This document shows positions 35,683 through 61,382 of a stretch of DNA of 64,000 nucleotides, in pieces (position 1 is the stretch's first letter; each line of letters starts with the position of its first letter). Source of the stretch: Planctomycetota bacterium (GTDB lineage Bacteria; Planctomycetota; Planctomycetia; Planctomycetales; Planctomycetaceae); the NCBI GenBank assembly GCA_003388505.1, contig QQVO01000014.1:1-64000 (forward strand), given 5' to 3'. The translations under genes were made by a program, and so were the position numbers. The notes under the pieces were generated by a model that was given only the letters and a program-made list of their open reading frames with translations, did no database searches and was not told the origin of the DNA.

Positions 35683-35711
35683 CCCTCGACCCTCGACCCT
35701 CGACCCTCGAC
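35683..35711 (-). repeat. heptamer array CCTCGAC, four units
   Basis: Four tandem CCTCGAC units end 6 bases before the ATG of clpP2. The reverse complement, GTCGAGG, forms the arrays inside ileS at 52821-52844 and 54934-54965. Confidence 0.8.
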
Positions 35712-38103: not shown

Positions 38104-38218
38104 CAATCCTGTCTTCAAGTCGAGTCGCTGCTGTTTGGTTCACGGCCGTCCACCCCCGCCGGACCGCATCTGAGGTCATTCTAGTCGTGCATCCGGAGCA
38201 GGGAAACCTCCCTCCGAG

Positions 38219-38234
38219 CGTTTCACGTGAAACG
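38219..38234. promoter_or_regulatory. parS site 1
   Basis: CGTTTCACGTGAAACG, a perfect 16-bp palindrome matching the bacterial parS core TTTCACGTGAAA. ParB binding and spreading should start here. Confidence 0.92.
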
Positions 38235-38363
38235 GTCCCTGTTGTGGAACAGGTTTTCAACCCTGTCAGCAACCCAGGGTGGCGCGGGTGCGCCGCTCAC
38301 CCTGGGCTGTGATTGTCGTACGCCTGCAGCGTACGAATCGCACCGGCGTGGACCGCGGCAGAC

Positions 38364-38379
38364 CGTTTCACGTGAAACG
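38364..38379. promoter_or_regulatory. parS site 2
   Basis: CGTTTCACGTGAAACG, identical to site 1, 145 bases further on. Confidence 0.92.
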
Positions 38380-38527
38380 CTCCGGCGTCCACACGGCTTC
38401 CACCCCGGCGGCTTGCTCCCCGTGCCGCTGCTTGTCGGTCCGTTCCCAAACAGAAGTTTGGCAACGAGAGGTGTGATGCGTGGGCGCACGGCCCACTCGG
38501 CGGCGGGAGTGGGTTACACTGTCAGAC

Positions 38528-38543
38528 CGTTTCACGTGAAACG
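38528..38543. promoter_or_regulatory. parS site 3
   Basis: CGTTTCACGTGAAACG, identical to sites 1 and 2. Confidence 0.92.
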
Positions 38544-38781
38544 CTCCCCGTAGAACAGGCTGCCAGCCTGTTCCCGAATGATGCTCCAGACGACCACGTC
38601 GCCGATTCGCCGGGACGTTGGACCGACAGGTTGGAAACCTGTCGTACGGGATGGGGCAGCAACCCGTCGCAGCAGATCCTGATCCAGCTACCGACGTCGG
38701 GCAACTTCCACGTACGATGCGATACGATGACCGATCGGTGCATCGGCCCACTCGCGGAGCGAGTGGGCTACATTTGCGGAC

Positions 38782-38797
38782 CGTTTCACGTGAAACG
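38782..38797. promoter_or_regulatory. parS site 4
   Basis: CGTTTCACGTGAAACG, 30 bases before the TTG start of the glycosyltransferase gene, so ParB bound here could affect its transcription. Confidence 0.92.
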
Positions 38798-38826
38798 GTG
38801 AGCAGCGAACCGGCAGGACTCCGAGT

Positions 38827-40662
38827 TTGAATCATCGCGGCAACATCTCCGAACCGGCGCCGCCTGAGACCGGTCGGCCTTTGCGCAGCGAATGCGGGGC
38901 GATTCTGTTGATCAGTCTGGCGGCTTTGCTGCTGCGGGCGGCCGTGCCGGACCGGATGGCGGTCGAGCACTTCGATGAGGGGGTGTACGCGTCGAACTGG
39001 TATTGCCAGGATTTGGATCCGCCGGAGCAGTTCCCCGATCGGCACCTGTACGCGCCTCCGCTGCTGCCGGAGTTGCTGGAATGGCCGTTGAGCCTGACCG
39101 GGAACGCAGCGAGCGTGATGTGGGTCAACGTGGCTGCCGGGACGCTGATGGTGTTGCTGGTCTGGTGGACGACGCGGGAGTGGTTCGGACCGGCGGCGGG
39201 ACTCATTGCGGCCGTCCTGGCGGCGACGAGCGACTACCACATCGCCTTCAGTCGGGCTGCGCTGACAGACGCGCTGCTCGCGCTGTGGATGCTGGCCGGC
39301 GTCTACGCAGGGTGGCGGGCGATCCTTTCGCGGGGACCGATCTGGATTGGGGCGGCGGGGCTGCTGGCCGGGCTGGCCTGGTGCACGAAATACAACGGGT
39401 GGCTGACGCTGGCGGTCACCGGGTCGGGGGCCGCCGGTTGGTTGCTGGTTTCCCGTCCCCACTCGGTTTCCTGGCCGGGCGTTCTCCTGAAGTGGGGCGC
39501 GACGGCGGCGATTGCGGCGGGGCTGTTCTGGGTGGTCGCGGTGCGGGGACTGGCCGACCTGGGGGGCTACGCGGCCGTCGCCGAGAACCACGCGCGGTAC
39601 TTCACCGGCCTGTCCGGCTGGAGGTTGAACGTGTTGCAGCATGTCGCGGCTCACCGCGTCCTCGATGGATGGGCTTCGTGGCTGGGGCTGGCCGCTGCGG
39701 GATTGCTGGCTGTGATTCTGCCGGCGAAGCGTTTCACGTGGAACGGTCTCCGAGGCTGGCTCGCGATCGCCGCGGTCGCGGCCGGTCTCCTGGCAGTCGC
39801 GATTCTCTGGGGAACGACCGTCGTCCTGTTTTTGATTGCGGCGATTGGACTGCTGATCCGGCTAAAGCGGCTGCGGCAGCCGGCCGACGCCGGCGGAGCC
39901 GGGGCCGAGACCGATCGAGGAACAGCGGATGAACCACGTCGATTGGCCGGTTGGCTGCTGGCCGCCTGGTTCATTGGGCTGTTCATCGGGACTCCGCTGT
40001 ATCATCCGTATCCGCGGCTGTCGTTGGTGTGGCTCACTGCGGCGTGGATTGCGGCCGCGTGGAGTTTCAGCCGAGCGGTCGGCGAGGCGGCACAACCGGG
40101 CCGTCGGGAGAGTCCGGCGCTCCGGCGGTTGGCGGTGGGAGGGTGTGTGATCGTGCTGCTGGTGCTCGCCGGCTGGAGACTGGCGCAAAGCGACCGGGCT
40201 GTGGCGGCCGCCTGGGACGACCGGACCGGCATGCAGTCCGCCGCGCTGAGGATTCTCGACCGACTCGAAGAGGAGTCTTCCGAGTCCGGATCGACGGCGG
40301 GCGGTGAGCTGGATGCAGTCATCTATGTCTATGCGGAGCCGGCGCTGTTCTTTCAACTCGAAGCGGCGCGGGGATCGACCGCGCTGGAGTATGTGACTCA
40401 GCCGGCCGGCAATCTGGATCTCCTCAAGCCTGGCGCCACCGATCCGCGCGTCGCCACGTACCTGCTGACTGGTCCGCACGCGGATCGGAGCGGAGCGGGT
40501 GAAGCGCTGGCATCCGCTGACGCGCGGCTGTTGGCGGAGTTCGACTATCGGCCGAGCAGACTGGTGCGGCTGGATCAGAGTCCGCGGGGCGTTCTGGAGT
40601 CGCCCGACCCGCCGATCGAGCAGATCCGGTTGTACCGCATCCACTCTGGAGACAGTCGGTGA
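38827..40662 (+). CDS. membrane glycosyltransferase, GT39/ArnT-like
   Basis: A 611-residue multi-pass protein started at TTG 38827. After the first helix (GAILLISLAALLLRAAV) comes the acidic loop MAVEHFDEGVYASNWYCQ, matching the catalytic Asp-Glu region of GT-C enzymes that use lipid-linked sugars. About ten further helices follow (TLMVLLVWWTTREWFGPAAG, WIGAAGLLAGLAWCTKYNGW), then a soluble C-terminal domain. It should transfer a sugar to protein or lipid on the outer side of the membrane. The gene sits between the parS cluster and parB and contains a fifth, imperfect parS-like site at 39730. Confidence 0.85.
   Translation: MNHRGNISEPAPPETGRPLRSECGAILLISLAALLLRAAVPDRMAVEHFDEGVYASNWYCQDLDPPEQFPDRHLYAPPLLPELLEWPLSLTGNAASVMWVNVAAGTLMVLLVWWTTREWFGPAAGLIAAVLAATSDYHIAFSRAALTDALLALWMLAGVYAGWRAILSRGPIWIGAAGLLAGLAWCTKYNGWLTLAVTGSGAAGWLLVSRPHSVSWPGVLLKWGATAAIAAGLFWVVAVRGLADLGGYAAVAENHARYFTGLSGWRLNVLQHVAAHRVLDGWASWLGLAAAGLLAVILPAKRFTWNGLRGWLAIAAVAAGLLAVAILWGTTVVLFLIAAIGLLIRLKRLRQPADAGGAGAETDRGTADEPRRLAGWLLAAWFIGLFIGTPLYHPYPRLSLVWLTAAWIAAAWSFSRAVGEAAQPGRRESPALRRLAVGGCVIVLLVLAGWRLAQSDRAVAAAWDDRTGMQSAALRILDRLEEESSESGSTAGGELDAVIYVYAEPALFFQLEAARGSTALEYVTQPAGNLDLLKPGATDPRVATYLLTGPHADRSGAGEALASADARLLAEFDYRPSRLVRLDQSPRGVLESPDPPIEQIRLYRIHSGDSR
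39730..39745. promoter_or_regulatory. imperfect parS-like site within the glycosyltransferase gene
   Basis: CGTTTCACGTGGAACG differs from the perfect sites at one base. It encodes KRFTWNG within the protein. Selection on the DNA site inside a coding region is plausible but unproven. Confidence 0.6.
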
Positions 40663-41965: not shown

Positions 41966-42610
41966 GCCGGAAGTGAATGGACCGCGGATGTCGCGGGTTG
42001 GGCGGATTTCCGCGGGTGGGGACACAGAAGGCAACGGAGGGAGCAAAGGAATTCCTCGTTGCTAACCCGGATTATTCATGACGAGGGCCCGGTTCACTAT
42101 AAGCGTTTGCCAAACAGCAGGTTATCGAGAAGTTGCCCAAAGCGCCGCGCTCTTCGAACGCATTACACGCCGACGCCAAGTCAACGGTGACGCACGCTGG
42201 CAGCGTGCGCTACGAATAATCCGGGCTATGTGCCCAATCAGAAGTTTGGGCACGAGGTCTTCCAGAGTTCGGTTGCACCGGCGGGTTGACGCCCGTCGCT
42301 CGCCAATTCGGAGGAAACTGCTTGACCGTCGAATTCGGGCTGCCGTAAGATCAAGGAGGCGGCGCGGCGCAACCGGGGGGTCTGTTCTCCGGACAACCCG
42401 GACAAGCGGCAAAGTCGAACTTATTTCGCCGACCGTGCTGACGGCGGCGGAAAGGGCCGATGTTTGTCGAGATGGAGCGGTCTGCCCTCTGCGGACGGAT
42501 CCGGCGGCACTGCGTCCCGAACACATCCGTGGGATCCCGGTTTTCCCGAGGCCGACTGGACCGTATCCGGCCTTCCCGGCGATTCGCGAGTGAACTCCAC
42601 GAGGTTGACG
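41966..42610. other. intergenic region with MITE-like element
   Basis: It contains the 159-bp element at 42067-42225 and a family I palindrome at 42231-42252. The open frame of the downstream coiled-coil gene extends to 42464 but without conserved features. No other gene is seen. Confidence 0.5.
42067..42225 (+). mobile_element. 159-bp MITE-like element, copy 1
   Basis: It begins CCGGATTATTC and ends GAATAATCCGG, perfect 11-bp terminal inverted repeats. The interior matches the second copy (57728-57886) in length and with only a few differences, mostly in the middle (42140-42170). The right end includes a family A palindrome (CGCACGCTGGCAGCGTGCGC). There is no coding capacity. Flanks do not give a clean target-site duplication. 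Confidence 0.82.
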
Positions 42611-47785: not shown

Positions 47786-47890
47786 GGTCTGGGCGCACGG
47801 TGGGCGGGGAACAACACAGGCGGGCCGTTTCATGCTGGCGGGGAATTATAGGAGAGGGGTCGGACGCCGCCAATCGGAGAGTTGAGGGGT

Positions 47891-47912
47891 CCACGGGTTG
47901 CAACCCGTGGGC
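47891..47912. repeat. palindrome family F, copy 1
   Basis: CCACGGGTTGCAACCCGTGG followed by GC, a 9-bp stem. Copy 2 is inside ileS at 53239-53262 (in frame), and a variant with GGACGCAGCCC in the centre is at 61331-61353. Confidence 0.85.
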
Positions 47913-47925
47913 TTTGGAGGCGCGA

Positions 47926-51437: not shown

Positions 51438-51740
51438 ATGTTGAAGTCAATGATTGAATCCGACGTCCGGGAAATCGAAGCGGTGCCGTTCGGTGCAACC
51501 TGCGGCCTGTCGACGGTTCTCGATGGTCCGCGCCTGATTGACGACGACGACGAGGAGTTCGACGACTTCGACGACGACGATGATGATGACGACGACGATT
51601 ATGACGACTTCGATGACGACGAGTTCGACGACGACGAACTCGATGATGACGACGACGACTTCGATGACGACGACGATTTCGACGACGATGACGAGGAGGA
51701 CGACGACTTCGAAGACTTCGATGACGAAGAGGATTTCTGA
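51438..51740 (+). CDS. aspartate-rich low-complexity protein
   Basis: A 100-residue frame: a normal N-terminus (MLKSMIESDVREIEAVPFGA, TCGLSTVLDGPRLI) then about 65 residues composed almost only of Asp, Glu, Phe, Tyr and Leu. GAGGT lies about ten bases before the ATG. The third positions in the Asp run mix GAC and GAT, which suggests selection at the protein level rather than a simple DNA slippage tract. A calcium- or cation-binding disordered tail is a reasonable guess. A terminator-like hairpin follows at 51803-51846. Confidence 0.6.
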   Translation: MLKSMIESDVREIEAVPFGATCGLSTVLDGPRLIDDDDEEFDDFDDDDDDDDDDYDDFDDDEFDDDELDDDDDDFDDDDDFDDDDEEDDDFEDFDDEEDF

Positions 51741-52044: not shown

Positions 52045-55000
52045 ATGTTTCAGAAGGTTGACGACCCGAATTTCATTGCCGGTGAGCATGAGATGCTCCG
52101 CTTCTGGCGGGAGGCGGATGTCTTCCGGCGGTTGCAGCGGCAGAACGCCGGGAAGCCGCGGTGGAGCTTTCTTGACGGGCCGATCACGGCCAACAACCCG
52201 ATGGGGGTGCACCACGCATGGGGGCGGACGTACAAGGACGCCTTTCAGCGGTATTTCGCGATGACGGGGCACGAACTGCGGTATCAGAACGGATTCGACT
52301 GCCAGGGACTGTGGGTGGAGGTCGAGGTTGAGAAGGAACTCAATCTGGGGACGAAGACCGGGATCGCGGACTACGGGATCGACCGGTTCGTGCATGAGTG
52401 CAAGAAGCGGGTGCTGCGGTTCGCGGCGCGGCAGACGGAGCAGTCGGTGCGGCTGGGCTACTGGATGGAGTGGGACGATCCGGAGGAGTTGCGGAAACTG
52501 GCGGAGGGGATTGGGACGGATGAGCGCATCACGCTCAAGACGCCTAAGGGCGAAGTCGCGAGCGGGACGGCGGAGGAACTCACCGCGCGGCTGGGGTGTC
52601 CGGAGTGGGGGGGGAGTTACTTTACGTTCTCGACGGAGAACAACGAGACGATCTGGACGTTCCTCAAGAAGTGCCACACGCGGGGGAAGATCTATCAGGG
52701 CCACGACGTGATGCCGTGGTCGGGGCGCGCCGGCAGTGCGTATTCGCAGATGGAGGTGGCGGACGGGCGGAAGCTGACGACGCACCGGTCGTGTTTTGTG
52801 CGGTTTCCGGTGTTGGACAAGGGTCGAGGGTCGAGGGTCGAGGGGGCACAGGGAGGGAGGGAGCAACCGGAGGCTGACGCCTCCGGCTCGCCTGGGGAGT
52901 TCTTGTTGGTTTGGACGACGACGCCCTGGACGCTCACGTCGAATGTGGCGTGTGCGGTGAATCCGGAGTTGGAGTATGTGCGGCTGCGGGCGAAGAAGGA
53001 TGATGCGGTCTACTACTTCGCGAAGGACAATCTGGAGTTCAAGCGGCTGGAGAGTGAGTTCAAGGAGGGGTTCGGGCGACCGGAATGGTCTTGGCCGGAG
53101 GGTGTGGGGAAGCTGAAGACGATTGCGCAGATGTTCAAGGAACAGGGAGGGTATGAGGTTGAAGGGACCGTCAAAGGGGCGGAGATGGTGGGCTGGCGGT
53201 ATGGGGGGCCGTTTGATGATCTGGAGGCGCAACGCGAGGCCCACGGGTTGCAACCCGTGGGCTTTTCGGGGCATGTGGTCATCGATGGGGGACGGGATTC
53301 GAAGGGGAACGCGCTTGTCGTCGCGGGCGAGGGGACGGGGATCGTCCACATCGCGCCGGGGTGCGGTGATGTGGATCATCAGATCGGCGTCGAACTGGGA
53401 CTGCCGGTGATTGCGCCGCTCAAGGAGGACGGGACGTTCGGCGATGGGTTCGGACCGTTCAGTGGACGCCGGGCGAGTGATCCGGAGACGGCGGAACTTG
53501 TGTTCGAGGAACTGAAGCAGAAGGGGCTGCTGGTCTACGTTGAGACGTATCCGCACATCTACCCGCACTGCTGGCGGACGGGGGACGAACTGGTGTTCCG
53601 GCTGGTGGACGAATGGTTCATCAACATGGACTGGCGGGACGAAATCAAGGCGGTGACGCGGGAGATCGAGTGGCTGCCGCCGGAGATCGACGGCGAGGAA
53701 CGGGAGATCGAGTGGCTCAACGGCATGCGGGACTGGATGATCTCGAAGAAGCGGTTCTGGGGCCTGGCGCTGCCGATCTGGGTGAATCCGGAGGACCCGA
53801 CGGATTTTGACGTCATCGGCGACCTGGACGAACTGCGCGAGCGGGCTGTCGAGGGCTGGGACGACTTCGAGGGGCATACACCGCACCGGCCCTGGATCGA
53901 TGGGGTGAAGATCAAGAGTGAGAAGACGGGGGCCGTGCTGTCGCGGATTGTGGATGTGGGGAACCCTTGGCTGGATGCGGGGATCACGCCGTTCTCCACG
54001 ATGCACTACAACCATGATCGGGAGGAGTGGGCGAAGTGGTACCCGGCGGATTTTGTGACGGAGTGTTTCCCGGGTCAGTTTCGGAACTGGTTCTATTCGC
54101 TGCTGTCGCTCTCGACGATGATGCGGTACGACGAGACGGACGTCGCGGCGGAGAAGCGGCCGTTCAAGACGTTGCTCGGTCACCGGCTGGTGATGGACGA
54201 GCACGGGCAGCCGATGCACAAGAGCGACGGGACCGCGATCTGGTTCGAAGAGGCGGCCGAGCAGCTTGGCGTCGATACGCTGCGGTGGATGTATCTCGCC
54301 CAGAATCCGGCTCAGGACCTGCGGTTCGGCACGCGGCATCCGGACGAACGGGTGACTCTCGAGACGCCGGAAGGGCCGATCGATCACACGAAAGAAGGTC
54401 TGCCGTGCGCTCGCGTGACGAGCAAGCCGGCCGATGAAGTGCGGCGGATGGTGCTGTTGCCTTTGTGGAACAGTTACGCGTTCTTCGTCAACTACGCGCA
54501 TGCGGACGAGTTCGATCCGTCGCTGCCGGAGGTGCCGGTGGCCGAGCGGCCGAACATCGACCAGTGGATTCTGTCGAACCTGCAGGCATTCCTGCAGACG
54601 GCGAACGAGAGTTTTCAGAAGTACGAAGCGGCGGAGGTTTGCCGGGCGGCGGCGAGTTTCATTGATGATCTTTCGAACTGGTACATTCGGCGGAATCGGC
54701 GGCGGTTCTGGAGGTCGAGGGAGGAGGGGCGAGGGGCGAGTGATGAGGGTCCAGGGTCGAGAGCGGAGAGCCGAGAGCGAAGCCCGGCGGCGGCCATTGG
54801 CGGGTCCGATTGGGATCCGGACAAACTGGCGGCCTACCAGACGCTCTACAAGGTCCTCGTCACACTCTCCAAGGCGCTGGCGCCTGTGGTTCCGTTCCTT
54901 GCCGAACGGATGTATCGGAATCTGGTCGGGATTGGTCGAGGGTCGAGGGTCGAGGGTCTAGAGACTGGCGGTGGGCCGGAGTCGGTGCATTTGTGTGAGT

Positions 55001-55776
55001 ATCCGCAGGCGGACCTGGAGCTATTGAAGCCTGATTTGAACCGGCAGACGGAGGTTGTGCAGCGTGTGGTGCGGTTGGGGCACCGGTTGCGGGAAGAGGC
55101 GAACCAGCGGGTGCGGCAGCCATTGGCGGAACTGAAGTTCGCCTGCGCAGACGAGCGGGACGCGGAAGACATCGCGGGGTTGTCGGCGGTGATCTGCGAT
55201 GAGTTGAATGTGAAGAGGCTGACGCGGGCCGATGACCTGGGCGACCTGGTGAGTTACTCGTACAAGCCGAATCTGAAGACGCTGGGGCCGAAGTACGGGA
55301 GGCTCTTGAAGTTGATTCGGGAGGAGTTGCCTGGGCTGGGGGATGAGGTTCTGGGGCCGTTGCGAAGCGGCGAGCCGGTGGGGGTGACGGTTGGGGGGGA
55401 GGAGATTACGCTCGAGCCGGAGGATGTGCTGGTGTCGACGGAGCAGGCGAGCGACTGGGCGAGCGGGAGTGATGCGGGGATTCAGATTGCGCTGTCGACG
55501 GCGCTGACCCCGGAACTGGTGCGTGAGGGGATGGCCCGCGACTTCGTGCGTCACGTGCAGCAGGCGCGGAAGGATGCGAACCTGGAGATCACCGACCGTA
55601 TCCGGATTGAGTACGCGGGCGGCGACGAGGCGACGGCGGCCGTGGATGAGTGGCAGGAGTACGTGAAGGGTGAGACGCTGGCGGACCGTCTGGAGCGGGT
55701 GGACTCGCTGCCGGACGAGGTACGGGAGGTGTCGGTGGGGGAAACGAGTGCCAAGGTTCGCATTGAACGGTGTTGA
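52045..55776 (+). CDS. ileS: isoleucyl-tRNA synthetase with four in-frame repeat insertions
   Basis: A 1243-residue class I synthetase. The HIGH region reads [11 protein letters not shown] (HHAW at residues 56-59) and the KMSKS region reads [11 protein letters not shown] (724-729), a clade-type variant. [20 protein letters not shown] and [20 protein letters not shown] are the editing domain; [12 protein letters not shown] lies in the anticodon-binding half. Four linkers are extended by repeat DNA: residues about 258-287 (heptamer array plus a family H unit), 399-406 (exactly the 24-bp family F palindrome, AHGLQPVG), about 892-917 (GA-rich repeat) and 964-974 (heptamer array). The reading frame is kept throughout, so the enzyme should be functional. 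Confidence 0.95.
52821..52844 (+). repeat. heptamer array GTCGAGG inside ileS
   Basis: Three and a half GTCGAGG units in the ileS reading frame, translated as GRGSRVEG, followed at 52876-52901 by an inverted family H unit (GAGGCTGACGCCTCCGGCTC then GCCTGG). Confidence 0.85.
53239..53262 (+). repeat. family F palindrome exactly in frame in ileS
   Basis: 24 bases, GCCCACGGGTTGCAACCCGT then GGGC, starting at a codon boundary and adding eight residues. The same palindrome is intergenic at 47891-47912. Confidence 0.88.
54718..54795 (+). repeat. degenerate GA-rich repeat in ileS
   Basis: Variants of GAGG/GGTCGAG units translated as [20 protein letters not shown]. It lies where other synthetases have a short linker after RRRFWRS. 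Confidence 0.65.
54934..54965 (+). repeat. second heptamer array inside ileS
   Basis: GGTCGAGGGTCGAGGGTCGA followed by GGGTCTAGAGAC, translated as [10 protein letters not shown]. Confidence 0.82.
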
Positions 55777-56935: not shown

Positions 56936-57742
56936 ATGCGACCGGCGTCCGTTGAGTCACCCCCGATTGCGACTGCCGCGTTCTCTGCGGAGGAACTCGG
57001 TGCGTTTGCGCGCGACGGGTTTGTCGTCGTGCGGGGACTGGGGGAGGCTCGGCTTTGTCGGCGGATGCTGGATGTGACGCTGGAGGGGCTGCACCGGCGA
57101 ATCGAACCGGTGGAGCTGGAGGCGGATGTGCATTATCCGGGCGCTCCCGACTCGCGGGAGGTAGCCGGGGGAGAAACCGTGCGGCGGCTGAAGCAGGCGC
57201 ATAGCCGGGATTATGCGTTTACGGAGTGGATGACGCGACCGGCGCTTGTTGGGCGGCTGCAGCAGTTACTGGGGCCGGAGATCGTCTGTCCGCTGGCGCA
57301 CCATAACTGCGTGATGACGAAGCATCCGGCGTACAGCAGCGAAACGGGGTGGCATCAGGACATCCGCTACTGGTCGTACGCGCGGCCGGAACTGGTGACT
57401 GTGTGGCTGGCGCTGGGAGTAGAGCGGGAGCGGAACGGCTGCTTGCGCGTGATCCCCGGTTCGCATCAGATGCCGATTGATCGCAGCCGGTTCGACGAGG
57501 CGGTGTTCTTTCGCGAAGACCTGGCGGAGAATCAGGCGCTGATCGAGACGGCGCGGCCGGTTGAACTCGAACCGGGAGACGTGCTGTTTTTCCACTGCCG
57601 CACGCTGCACGCGGCCAGCCGGAATTTGTCCGAGGAGACGAAGTACTCGGTGGTGTTTACGTTTCGTGCGGCCGACAATCCGCCGCTGGGGGGAACACGG
57701 TCGGCCGCCTCGCCGGAGCTGCTTATTCCGGATTATTCATGA
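56936..57742 (+). CDS. phytanoyl-CoA dioxygenase (PhyH) family protein
   Basis: A 268-residue Fe(II)/2-oxoglutarate oxygenase from ATG 56936. The metal triad is HxD in TGWHQDIRYWS and the distal His in HCRTLHAASRNLS; the 2-oxoglutarate Arg is likely in the same strand (AASRN). NGCLRVIPGSHQMPIDRSRF is the family signature. The last residues (IPDYS) and the TGA stop are encoded by the left end of the second MITE-like element, so the C-terminus has been changed by insertion. Confidence 0.88.
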   Translation: MRPASVESPPIATAAFSAEELGAFARDGFVVVRGLGEARLCRRMLDVTLEGLHRRIEPVELEADVHYPGAPDSREVAGGETVRRLKQAHSRDYAFTEWMTRPALVGRLQQLLGPEIVCPLAHHNCVMTKHPAYSSETGWHQDIRYWSYARPELVTVWLALGVERERNGCLRVIPGSHQMPIDRSRFDEAVFFREDLAENQALIETARPVELEPGDVLFFHCRTLHAASRNLSEETKYSVVFTFRAADNPPLGGTRSAASPELLIPDYS

Positions 57743-57886
57743 CGAGGGCCCGGTTCACTATCAGTGTTTGCCAAACAGCAGGTAATCGAGAAGTTGCCCA
57801 AAGCGCCGCGATTTTTGAAGGGATTGGACGCCGACGCCAAGTCAACGGTGACGCACGCTGGCAGCGTGCGCTACGAATAATCCGGG
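57728..57886 (+). mobile_element. 159-bp MITE-like element, copy 2
   Basis: Same length and same 11-bp terminal inverted repeats (CCGGATTATTC, GAATAATCCGG) as 42067-42225. It starts inside the PhyH gene, providing the stop codon (57740-57742), and ends 1 base before the HEAT-protein stop codon on the other strand. Adjacent flanks both contain TTATT, a possible but imperfect target duplication. Confidence 0.82.
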
Positions 57887-58915
57887 TTATTCACTCCTCT
57901 CCGGAATGATCCGCTGCAGCGCGGCGGTGGCGGCCTGTCTGGCTTCGCCGTCGTCTTCGAAGGCGATCTGCTGAAGCCGGGGGGCTGCGGCGCGGGCGTC
58001 GGGTCCGATGCGTCCGAGGATCTCGGCGACTGGCACAACGACGTCGGCCGGGCCGGTTTCAAGGACGGCGGCAAGCTGCGCGACGAAGGGAGCGGCTTCG
58101 GGGCCGAAGTTGCCGAGATTGGTGGCGGCCATCTGCCGGAGTTGCGGATCGTCGTGCCCCAGGAGATCGGTCAGTACGGGGATCACCTCGGTTTCGCGCC
58201 CAGGGATCAGGCAGAGAGCGGTGGCGGCGTTGGCGCGGACGTGAATCGAATCGTCATTTAAGGCGGTGAGGAGTGCGTCTTCGGCGTCTGCGCTCCGGGG
58301 GCCGATCATGGCGAGAATGGTGACGGCCATCTCGCGGACGTACGGATCGGCGGAGGCGAAGTGTTCGGTGAGAACGGGGACGGCGTCGCTACCGAGTTCG
58401 ACGAGAGCTTCCTGGGCCTTGGTCCATTGGTCGGGAGTGACGTTTGTGGACGTCAGAGTGTCGAAGTGCGCGGCAGCCTGCTCCTGGCGTTCAGTGGATG
58501 CCGTGTCGACGGCCGGTTCGACTTCCGGTGCGGTCGGTTTGACAGGCGGGGAGTTTGCGACGGGTTCGTTGGCGTGCGGCTCGCTCGTGACGGGAGATGA
58601 AGTTTGGACGGCTTCCGGTTCGTCCCGGCTGCCGCCGCAACCGGACAGGCCGGCGGTCAGCGTGACAGCGAGACAGAGTTGTGCGAGGGGAATGAGACTT
58701 CGGGTTCGGGGGGAGCGGGAGGTTTGCTCTGACAGATCCCGGACCAGCAACGAATCGCGTTCGGCGAACGTTGATCGGTCGAACGCACTCGCGACTCGCG
58801 GAGCGAGTCGCCTACATTGGGGGGCACCTTCTCCCCCCTGATGGGAGAGAAGGACGAGACTCGATGCACTGTTCGGATCATACAGGCGTTGGCTGAGGCG
58901 TGGATGGTCCTTCAT
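57887..58915 (-). CDS. HEAT-repeat lipoprotein
   Basis: A 342-residue frame. A lipobox lies near residue 92 (QLCLAVTLTAGLSGCGG), then a Pro/Thr-rich linker (residues 97-140) and HEAT repeats (TEHFASADPYVREMAVTILA, DALLTALNDDSIHVRANAAT, DLLGHDDPQLRQMAATNLGN). The ATG at 58915 overlaps the stop of the upstream membrane gene (ATGA), but the first 60 residues are encoded by repeat DNA (family C unit at 58791-58815) and are unlike a signal peptide. TTG 58750 would give a normal lipoprotein signal. The gene end touches the MITE copy. Confidence 0.78.
   Translation of the reverse strand: MKDHPRLSQRLYDPNSASSLVLLSHQGGEGAPQCRRLAPRVASAFDRSTFAERDSLLVRDLSEQTSRSPRTRSLIPLAQLCLAVTLTAGLSGCGGSRDEPEAVQTSSPVTSEPHANEPVANSPPVKPTAPEVEPAVDTASTERQEQAAAHFDTLTSTNVTPDQWTKAQEALVELGSDAVPVLTEHFASADPYVREMAVTILAMIGPRSADAEDALLTALNDDSIHVRANAATALCLIPGRETEVIPVLTDLLGHDDPQLRQMAATNLGNFGPEAAPFVAQLAAVLETGPADVVVPVAEILGRIGPDARAAAPRLQQIAFEDDGEARQAATAALQRIIPERSE
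58791..58815. repeat. REP-like unit, family C, copy 2
   Basis: GCGACTCGCGGAGCGAGTCG followed by CCTAC, identical to 51927-51951, here within the open frame upstream of the HEAT lipoprotein signal peptide. Confidence 0.8.
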
Positions 58916-61313: not shown

Positions 61314-61330
61314 GGGGGGGTGGAGACGGG

Positions 61331-61353
61331 CCCACGGGACGCAGCCCGTGGGC
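61331..61353. repeat. palindrome family F, variant copy 3
   Basis: CCCACGGGACGCAGCCCGTG followed by GGC, 30 bases before the ATG of the amidotransferase gene. Confidence 0.75.
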
Positions 61354-61382
61354 GTTGCAGTGGATTCGGGGAGCGGCGGGCG

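What the first reader, a model, noticed from the sequence alone, without database searches (positions are those of the whole stretch)
52821..54965. Four in-frame repeat insertions in isoleucyl-tRNA synthetase
ileS has four linker extensions made of the same repeats found between genes: heptamer arrays (52821-52844, 54934-54965), a family H unit (52876-52901), a family F palindrome of exactly 24 bases on a codon boundary (53239-53262) and a GA-rich repeat (54718-54795). The frame is kept each time in an essential gene. This resembles the palindromic elements that invade genes in Rickettsia, but in a planctomycete and with several repeat families in one gene.
Basis: partly seen in the sequence, partly recalled or inferred. 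Interest (0 to 1): 0.78.

Follow-up and report, generated by a model that had tools for sequence, protein, structure and literature searches.

The report
Repeat DNA fills tRNA-synthetase loops
In a group of planctomycete bacteria, short repeated DNA sequences have repeatedly turned up inside the same flexible loops of essential protein-making enzymes without breaking the reading frame, and different lineages carry different repeats there.

Summary
ileS (52045-55776, 1243 aa, the only ileS found) carries two GGTCGAG heptamer arrays, a hairpin repeat and a 24-base palindrome. The 'GA-rich repeat' is a third, degenerate heptamer array. All keep frame.

Against relatives, sites 1, 3 and 4 are extra segments; they match the AlphaFold2 model's only segments of three or more residues under pLDDT 50. 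Site 2 is no clean insertion: its linker is 16 aa where 45 of 61 have 23.

The pattern is family-wide. In 76 related IleRS, 94 lengthened linkers include 22 with heptamer arrays (none in 20 codon shuffles), 6 with octamer arrays, 12 with perfect stems of 9 bp or more (shuffles 0.1). Fifty-four show no repeat sign. Heptamers differ between genera. valS repeats this: 8 of 18 genes.

One two-hairpin element lies at different ileS sites in two related genomes, whose genomes hold 26 and 31 hits to it: evidence of copying in, not local slippage. I read this as repeated invasion by lineage-specific repeats, filtered for frame and loop. In-frame REPs in genes, synthetases included, are published; heptamer arrays recurring in the same loops of two essential genes look new.

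The parts
52045..55776 (+). ileS, isoleucyl-tRNA synthetase, 1243 aa, only copy found
   Evidence: Pfam tRNA-synt_1, Anticodon_1 and DUF5915; TIGR00392 in own genome, under the family cut-off in each piece; near-whole-length matches in six relatives
52820..52844 (+). Site 1, heptamer array GGTCGAG x3.6, reads GRGSRVEG
   Evidence: TRF, lag-7 scan; linker 30 aa, against 7-8 aa in 36 of 65
52869..52892 (+). Site 1, hairpin repeat 'family H' (corrected coordinates)
   Evidence: Genome copies; 8-bp perfect stem
53239..53262 (.). Site 2, 24-base palindrome on a codon boundary, reads AHGLQPVG; in a linker shorter than in relatives
   Evidence: linker 16 aa, 45 of 61 have 23
54713..54782 (+). Site 3, ten degenerate heptamers, all ending in AG
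   Evidence: Lag-7 segment 54713-54740, full extent; linker 39 aa, 44 of 60 have 11
54934..54958 (+). Site 4, heptamer array GGTCGAG x3.6, reads GRGSRVEG
   Evidence: TRF, lag-7 scan; linker 18 aa, 22 of 66 have 9 or fewer
35683..35711 (-). Heptamer array of the same unit, just upstream of an ORF beginning MSNLVPF (ClpP-like, name recalled, not searched)
47888..47915 (.). Copy of the site 2 palindrome between ORFs
   Evidence: the repeat finder family D16; 1 mismatch in the core
61329..61356 (.). Diverged copy of the site 2 palindrome
   Evidence: the repeat finder family D16, 82% identity

Best explanation
Lineage-specific dispersed repeats (heptamer arrays, some octamer arrays, and REP-like hairpins) are copied from place to place in these planctomycete genomes. 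When a copy lands in an essential gene, only those that keep the frame, read without a stop and fall in a surface loop survive selection. The four loops of IleRS and several loops of ValRS are such permissive places, so they collect repeats again and again, and a lengthened loop becomes a larger target for the next copy. Hairpins may be moved by Y1 (RAYT-like) transposases. Heptamer arrays probably spread by ectopic template switching or gene conversion between arrays and then change length by slippage. Shown: repeats present, family-wide recurrence at the same sites, the same element at different sites in relatives, low-confidence loops. Inferred: the direction (gain), the copying mechanism, near-neutral effect on the enzyme.
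For: Of 94 lengthened linkers in 76 IleRS, 22 carry lag-7 arrays (codon shuffles 0 in all 20; core control 8 of 1510 pieces, 0.5 expected), 6 carry lag-8, lag 12 one, other lags from 4 to 11 none; stems of 9 bp or more 12, against 0.1 in shuffles and 0.62 expected from cores. Length state changes at least 12, 6, 9 and 12 times on a quick tree at sites 1-4, heptamer presence 11 times. A two-hairpin element TTAGCCCC...GGGGCTAA lies at site 3 in L129 and at site 2 in L132, with other sequence at the alternate site in each; its hairpin pattern has 26 and 31 hits, both strands, in those two genomes. In G001 a 29-nt mixed heptamer array has 3 exact genome copies, 2 of them in ileS, and no hit in 8 other genomes. 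ValRS: 13 lag-7 arrays in 8 of 18 genes, lag 6 two, other lags from 4 to 12 none. AF2's only segments of 3 or more residues with pLDDT under 50 are 262-281, 895-920 and 964-976, i.e. sites 1, 3 and 4. Single-contig genomes (G001, G004, G013) show repeat-bearing linkers too. The window's genome has 10 Y1_Tnp hits.
Against: 54 of 94 lengthened linkers show none of the three repeat signs (lag 7, lag 8, stem of 8 bp or more), so many linkers have another or an eroded origin. Site 2 of the window is shorter, not longer, than usual. Hairpins are a weak sign alone: 3 of 9 IleRS of other families also hold a stem of 9 bp or more. No target duplication or transposase link was shown; Y1_Tnp is also found in 5 of 14 control genomes. 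Counts of changes do not tell gain from loss. Two units (GAACACT in L144 and L184, AGACACT in L129) lie in an orientation whose perfect repeat has a stop, so they survive only by being short or varied. No evidence that the peptides are made. In the 400 kb sample only 1 of 4 heptamer arrays was scored as in a gene, and only 6 of 49 palindromes were clearly in genes, so genes as a whole are not preferred.
Confidence: 0.65

Rival explanations
1. The arrays arose in place: relaxed, disordered loops tolerate slippage, and heptamers grew locally from short seeds; the likeness to other repeats in the genome only reflects a genome-wide slippage bias for 7-nt units.
For: The arrays printed are short, about 3-4 units, and differ between genera; lag 7 is also the commonest lag in the genome sample, 4 against 0-2 for lags 4-14 once the masked run of N is taken off each.
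Against: An exact 29-nt mixed-unit array at two ileS sites and one other place only; exact palindromes and two-hairpin elements shared with many other places are not slippage products; the same unit in both orientations within one gene (L040).
Confidence: 0.2
2. The linkers are selected parts of the enzyme (domesticated), for example spacing or regulatory segments, and repeats are merely the raw material.
For: Kept in an essential gene and shared by some close relatives (e.g. L144 and L184, L157/L175/L178); some site 2 inserts are 126-160 aa and look domain-like.
Against: Sequence, length and repeat family differ between genera and the short form is common (36 of 65 at site 1); predicted at low confidence in the window's enzyme.
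Confidence: 0.1
3. Ordinary hypervariable loops of GC-rich low-complexity sequence; repeats are coincidence or assembly error.
For: Linker length varies widely, and 54 of 94 long linkers show no repeat sign.
Against: Shuffle and core controls; single-contig genomes show it; exact shared repeats.
Confidence: 0.05

Closest known systems
Rickettsia palindromic elements (RPEs)
   Same: Palindromic repeats present between genes and in frame inside conserved genes; apparently tolerated.
   Different: RPEs are about 150 bp with a conserved peptide (PMC10969869, passages); here units are 7-30 bp of several kinds that differ between genera, and heptamer arrays are the commonest repeat sign.
Intragenic REPs (GTAG/CGTC-tagged palindromes, Di Nocera et al. 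2013, PMC3733652; passages and section 15)
   Same: Short hairpins and hairpin pairs inside genes, including tRNA synthetases of three species and many genes of Opitutus terrae (a PVC relative); REPs known in Planctomycetes; two Xanthomonas species with different REPs at about the same place in recB.
   Different: A GTAG or CGTC tag is absent from most family F copies (1 of 49 and 6 of 49 within 7 nt of the stem). What I read there does not describe heptamer arrays, or the same loops filled in many genera.
Heptameric simple sequence repeats (STRR-like; Xanthomonas and Nostoc G-rich heptamers, PMC4692102, passages)
   Same: 7-nt units in short tandem arrays dispersed through the genome.
   Different: [quoted passage not shown] here they recur in ileS and valS loops.

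Membership tests
Rickettsia palindromic element | Repeat found both between genes and in frame inside conserved ORFs | tested here: met
   Palindrome: of 49 places examined 6 clearly in Pfam-confirmed genes, 5 ambiguous, 38 scored outside
Rickettsia palindromic element | About 150 bp element encoding a conserved peptide | tested here: not met
   24-base palindrome, 7-nt units
REP (GTAG/CGTC super-families) | Stem-loop with terminal GTAG or CGTC tag | tested here: not met
   Family F: within 7 nt of the stem, GTAG/CTAC in 1 of 49 copies, CGTC/GACG in 6 of 49. Other window repeats, D7 and D12, do show GTAG next to a stem on the complementary strand
REP (GTAG/CGTC super-families) | Associated RAYT transposase | tested here: inconclusive
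   10 Y1_Tnp hits in G000; of the 4 loci looked at, one has a CCCACGGG..CCCGTGGG hairpin about 1.1 kb away and one a D7-like hairpin about 0.4 kb away
Heptameric STRR-type repeats | Tandem 7-nt units dispersed in the genome | tested here: met
   21 hits, which I merge into 11 GGTCGAG arrays in G000; lag 7 commonest in the sample
Heptameric STRR-type repeats | Mainly outside coding regions | tested here: inconclusive
   GGTCGAG arrays: 8 of 11 in genes; any-unit arrays in a 400 kb sample: 1 of 4
RPE, REP and heptamer elements alike | Inserted peptide present in the expressed protein | not testable with these tools
   Needs proteomics

The most novel reading that the evidence does not exclude
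These planctomycetes have an active process that copies heptamer arrays as units, a kind of mobile microsatellite with no known machinery. The unit sequence drifts by genus while the 7-nt period stays fixed, and loops of class Ia tRNA synthetases act as safe harbours where copies outlive those elsewhere. The same loops would then record successive repeat families like a fossil log.
Probability: 0.25. Interest if true: 0.82.

Novelty: new variant of a known kind. Interest (0 to 1): 0.63.

Why it matters
Tandem repeats whose unit is not a multiple of three should be dangerous in an essential gene, because a change of one unit breaks the frame. Here they appear repeatedly, in different lineages, in the same loops of two essential enzymes. 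That gives a natural, replicated record of how selfish or neutral repeats become protein sequence, and lets one test where insertions are tolerated, how repeats move, and whether loop growth starts this way. It also tells annotators that such long planctomycete synthetases need not be misassemblies.

Tried and rejected
A second ileS that would make this one dispensable: none found in a 98.8% complete genome. Chance: rejected by shuffles and reversed-pattern controls. Assembly error: unlikely, since single-contig genomes show the same. 'GA-rich repeat' as its own family: rejected. Site 2 as a clean 24-base insertion: rejected. Lag-7 arrays outside the family: 0 of 9 IleRS of other families, though 3 of those 9 hold a stem of 9 bp or more. 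RAYT linkage: looked for, inconclusive.

What led nowhere: (wrong motif, no usable alignment; redone); one search stopped with an error at the fifth locus (the remaining loci, and one again, were done); five palindromes with coding-like flanks but antisense-looking translations (L077, L089, L090, L103, L111) were left unresolved and not counted as in genes. Rows dropped: of the 40 genomes, 33 entered the first alignment (left out: G017, G025, G030, G034, G036, G038, G039), six of the 33 as partial or broken sequences. Of 93 IleRS loci taken for the survey (the window, all 80, and 12 chosen), 3 were duplicates and 14 had a reading frame under 1100 aa, leaving 76. The linker patterns resolved 65, 61, 60 and 66 of 76 at sites 1, 2, 3 and 4. 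One of the 50 palindrome places (the one at window 47890) was not in the flank scan of 49. The tree is a quick FastTree with a long-branch warning. Thresholds differ: 17 of 21 matches, 16 of 21.

Full report
WHAT WAS CHECKED. The window is contig C38 of a 6.78 Mb, 78-contig genome, 98.8% complete. The gene at 52045-55776 is ileS: Pfam tRNA-synt_1, Anticodon_1 and DUF5915, with near-whole-length matches in six relatives at 63-71% identity. TIGR00392 finds one IleRS, in pieces each under the family cut-off; the other hits are ValRS on C14 (Pfam-confirmed) and weaker ones on C3 and C35 that I take to be LeuRS and MetRS (names not tested). Records of relatives are titled Planctomycetaceae, Thalassoglobus, Planctomicrobium, Gimesia, Schlesneria, Fuerstiella and the like; some are titled only Planctomycetota, one Pirellulaceae and three Kuenenia. 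I call the group Planctomycetaceae on that basis. The genus of the window itself was not identified.

THE REPEATS IN THE GENE. Site 1 holds GGTCGAG x3.6 at 52820-52844 and a hairpin repeat at 52869-52892 with 9 genome places at up to 3 mismatches. Site 2 holds the exact 24-base palindrome 53239-53262 on a codon boundary; its core has 50 genome places at up to 2 mismatches, control 0. Site 4 is GGTCGAG x3.6 at 54934-54958. Three of the window's four lag-7 arrays are in this gene; ten Markov shuffles average 0.0.

HOW UNUSUAL THIS IS IN THE GENOME. GGTCGAG x3 at up to 1 mismatch gives 21 hits, which I merge by eye into 11 arrays. Eight of the 11 lie in genes: 2 in ileS, 2 in valS, and one each in a His_biosynth gene (hisF by my reading), a PSCyt/DUF1549/DUF1553 gene, a VWA gene and an FG-GAP/BNR gene (for the last, Pfam was run on the overlapping downstream part of the frame). 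Three do not (C38:35685, C41, C9). In 20 stretches of 20 kb taken without regard to repeats, lag 7 gave 5 raw hits; one is a masked run of N that counts at every lag, so 4 are real, and lags 4-14 other than 7 give 0-2 after the same correction. Only one of the four was scored as in a gene. So heptamer arrays run at about 10 per Mb, and ileS holds three in 3.7 kb. Palindromes are mostly outside genes: of 49 places examined, 6 are clearly in Pfam-confirmed genes, 5 ambiguous, 38 scored outside. Five of those 6 use the same reading frame (HGxQPVG-like), although all three frames are open. Several genes were hit more than once: ileS, valS, the C5 cytochrome/DUF gene (palindrome and heptamers) and the C28 FG-GAP/BNR gene.

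RELATIVES: THE SAME LOOPS, OTHER REPEATS. I aligned IleRS from the window and 32 relatives, 33 of the 40 genomes. For the survey I took 93 loci (the window, the 80, 12 more from the family); 90 were distinct and 76 had a frame of at least 1100 aa. Linker lengths: site 1 resolved in 65, of which 36 have 7-8 aa and 29 have 13-97; site 2 in 61, of which 45 have 23 aa, the window 16, the shortest; site 3 in 60, of which 44 have 11 aa; site 4 in 66, 4-49 aa, of which 22 have 9 or fewer. So site 2 of the window looks like a replacement. Ninety-four linkers exceed the short form by more than 3 aa, in 52 genomes. At 16 of 21 matches, lag 7 is found in 22 of 94, lag 8 in 6, lag 12 in 1, lags 4-6 and 9-11 in none; codon shuffles average 0.0-0.05 per lag. 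Random pieces of the same genes' cores give 8 of 1510 at lag 7, or 0.5 expected. Perfect stems of 9 bp or more: 12 of 94, against 0.1 in shuffles and 0.62 expected from cores. Counting lag 7, lag 8 or a stem of 8 bp or more (16 of 94; shuffles 1.3, core 1.93), 40 of 94 linkers in 26 of 76 genomes show a sign; the other 54 do not. The units differ: GGTCGAG, GGGCAAG, ACCCTCA, GGAAAGC, CCGAAAA, GAACACT, CTCTCGA, TCAGCCA, AACGATC and others. Length state changes at least 12, 6, 9 and 12 times on a quick tree at sites 1-4, and heptamer presence (15 genomes) 11 times. These are counts of change, not of gain; at site 1 seven of nine IleRS of other families are short, which favours gain.

EVIDENCE FOR COPYING. 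In L129 a two-hairpin element TTAGCCCC...GGGGCTAA sits at site 3; in its relative L132 the same two hairpins, with another spacer, sit at site 2. L132 and L012 have other sequence at site 3, L129 has other sequence at site 2, and L012, sister to L132, has a single, diverged hairpin at site 2. The hairpin pattern has 26 hits in L129's genome and 31 in L132's, both strands counted, so some places count twice; it has none in the window's genome. In G001 the 29-nt array CCATCAACGATCAACCATCAACGATCAAC has 3 exact copies, two of them in ileS (sites 1 and 4); 26 hits at up to 3 mismatches, none in 8 other genomes. ACCCTCA x3 has 262 hits in G012 and 43 in G021 against 0-6 in the seven others. GGTCGAG x3 is found in 4 of 25 genomes, the window's own counted. 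In five genomes the same or a related unit is at two or more ileS sites (L009, L130, L136, L040, L021).

A SECOND ESSENTIAL GENE. ValRS genes from 18 genomes were aligned. The loop before NEVLATFYPGS, and others, show the same thing: in the window's genome a GGTTGCAACC-type palindrome plus heptamers. Lag-7 arrays: 13 in 8 of 18 genes; lag 6, two; the other lags from 4 to 12, none. G013's only GGTCGAG hit is in its valS. None of 9 IleRS from other families has a lag-7 array, but 3 of the 9 hold a perfect stem of 9 bp or more, so a stem alone is weak evidence.

STRUCTURE. AlphaFold2 on residues 1-1180 with 21 relatives gave mean pLDDT 85.7 and pTM 0.80. The only segments of 3 or more residues under 50 are 262-281, 895-920 and 964-976, which are sites 1, 3 and 4; site 2 falls in ten-residue blocks of 76 and 64. 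The best structural matches are four entries of Priestia megaterium type 2 IleRS. Site 1 lies just before the [10 protein letters not shown] strand, in what I recall as the editing domain; sites 3 and 4 lie in loops between helices, just before and inside the best stretch matched by Anticodon_1.

MECHANISM. I think dispersed, lineage-specific repeats are copied around, and that frame, readability and loop position decide which copies survive in essential genes. Three units (CCCTCAA, CATCAGC, ATCAACG) have a stop in one orientation and not in the other, and the perfect arrays of them in the ileS linkers stand in the open one. Two other units (GAACACT, AGACACT) stand in an orientation whose perfect repeat has a stop and escape by a changed or cut unit, so orientation is not an absolute rule. 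Hairpins may move by Y1 transposases, of which the genome has 10 hits, but 5 of 14 control genomes have some too, and linkage was not shown. How heptamers move is unknown; template switching or gene conversion is inference.

COMPARISON WITH WHAT IS KNOWN. In-frame palindromes in genes are known from Rickettsia (passages of PMC10969869; one original paper was sought and is not held). Di Nocera et al. 2013 (PMC3733652; passages and section 15) report REPs within ORFs of several species, with tRNA synthetases in three, REPs in Planctomycetes, and different REPs at about the same place in recB of two Xanthomonas species. That last is a small precedent for one site filled twice. [quoted passage not shown] A satellite survey notes heptamer-derived families in Bacteria (PMC6749651, passages). 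My searches listed no paper that I recognised as being on repeat-filled loops of planctomycete synthetases; several listings were cut at 8-15 rows and the library lacks most subscription journals. Hence: a new variant of a known kind.

LIMITS. The gene was picked post hoc. Many relatives are metagenome assemblies. In-gene calls outside Pfam-checked genes rest on a rough codon score trained on the window. No peptide has been seen. In mending this report I lowered the main confidence from 0.66 to 0.65 and the interest from 0.64 to 0.63, and raised the coincidence rival from 0.04 to 0.05, for the stems in other families, the two stop-bearing units and the Xanthomonas recB precedent.

Noticed in passing
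window 52204-52215 (IleRS residues 54-57): IleRS carries GVHH in place of the HxGH signature; so do 83 of 90 family sequences, the other 7 not resolved, and 4 of 9 IleRS from other families of the class, while 5 of those 9 have HPGH. GXHH is known in IleRS2, where it is tied to mupirocin hyper-resistance (PMC10485003, passages).
   Followed up: partly
L195, L042, L202 and L043, IleRS site 2: Domain-like inserts of 160, 152 and 126 aa at the site 2 loop in L195, L042 and L202, and another long one in L043; G001 ValRS has one of about 95 aa. Their families were not searched.
   Followed up: no
L190, IleRS site 1: A 67-aa linker that looks like an acyl-carrier-type helical domain (resemblance recalled, not searched).
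   Followed up: no
window 38213-39753: Five copies of GTTTCACGTGAAAC (one with a changed base), which match the parS consensus as I recall it; may mark an origin-proximal region.
   Followed up: no
window 42067-42229 and 57728-57890: A 163-nt repeat at 93% identity; each copy contains, near its end, a member of hairpin family D4.
   Followed up: no
window 51438-51740: A 100-aa ORF that is mostly aspartate, from a run of GAC/GAT codons.
   Followed up: no
G012 (relative), whole genome: Very rich in heptamer arrays: 262 overlapping hits of ACCCTCA x3 and 80 of GGTCGAG x3.
   Followed up: no
L227 592-4776: A planctomycete cytochrome/DUF1549/DUF1553 gene with the family F palindrome in one place and a heptamer array in another, both in frame.
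   Followed up: partly
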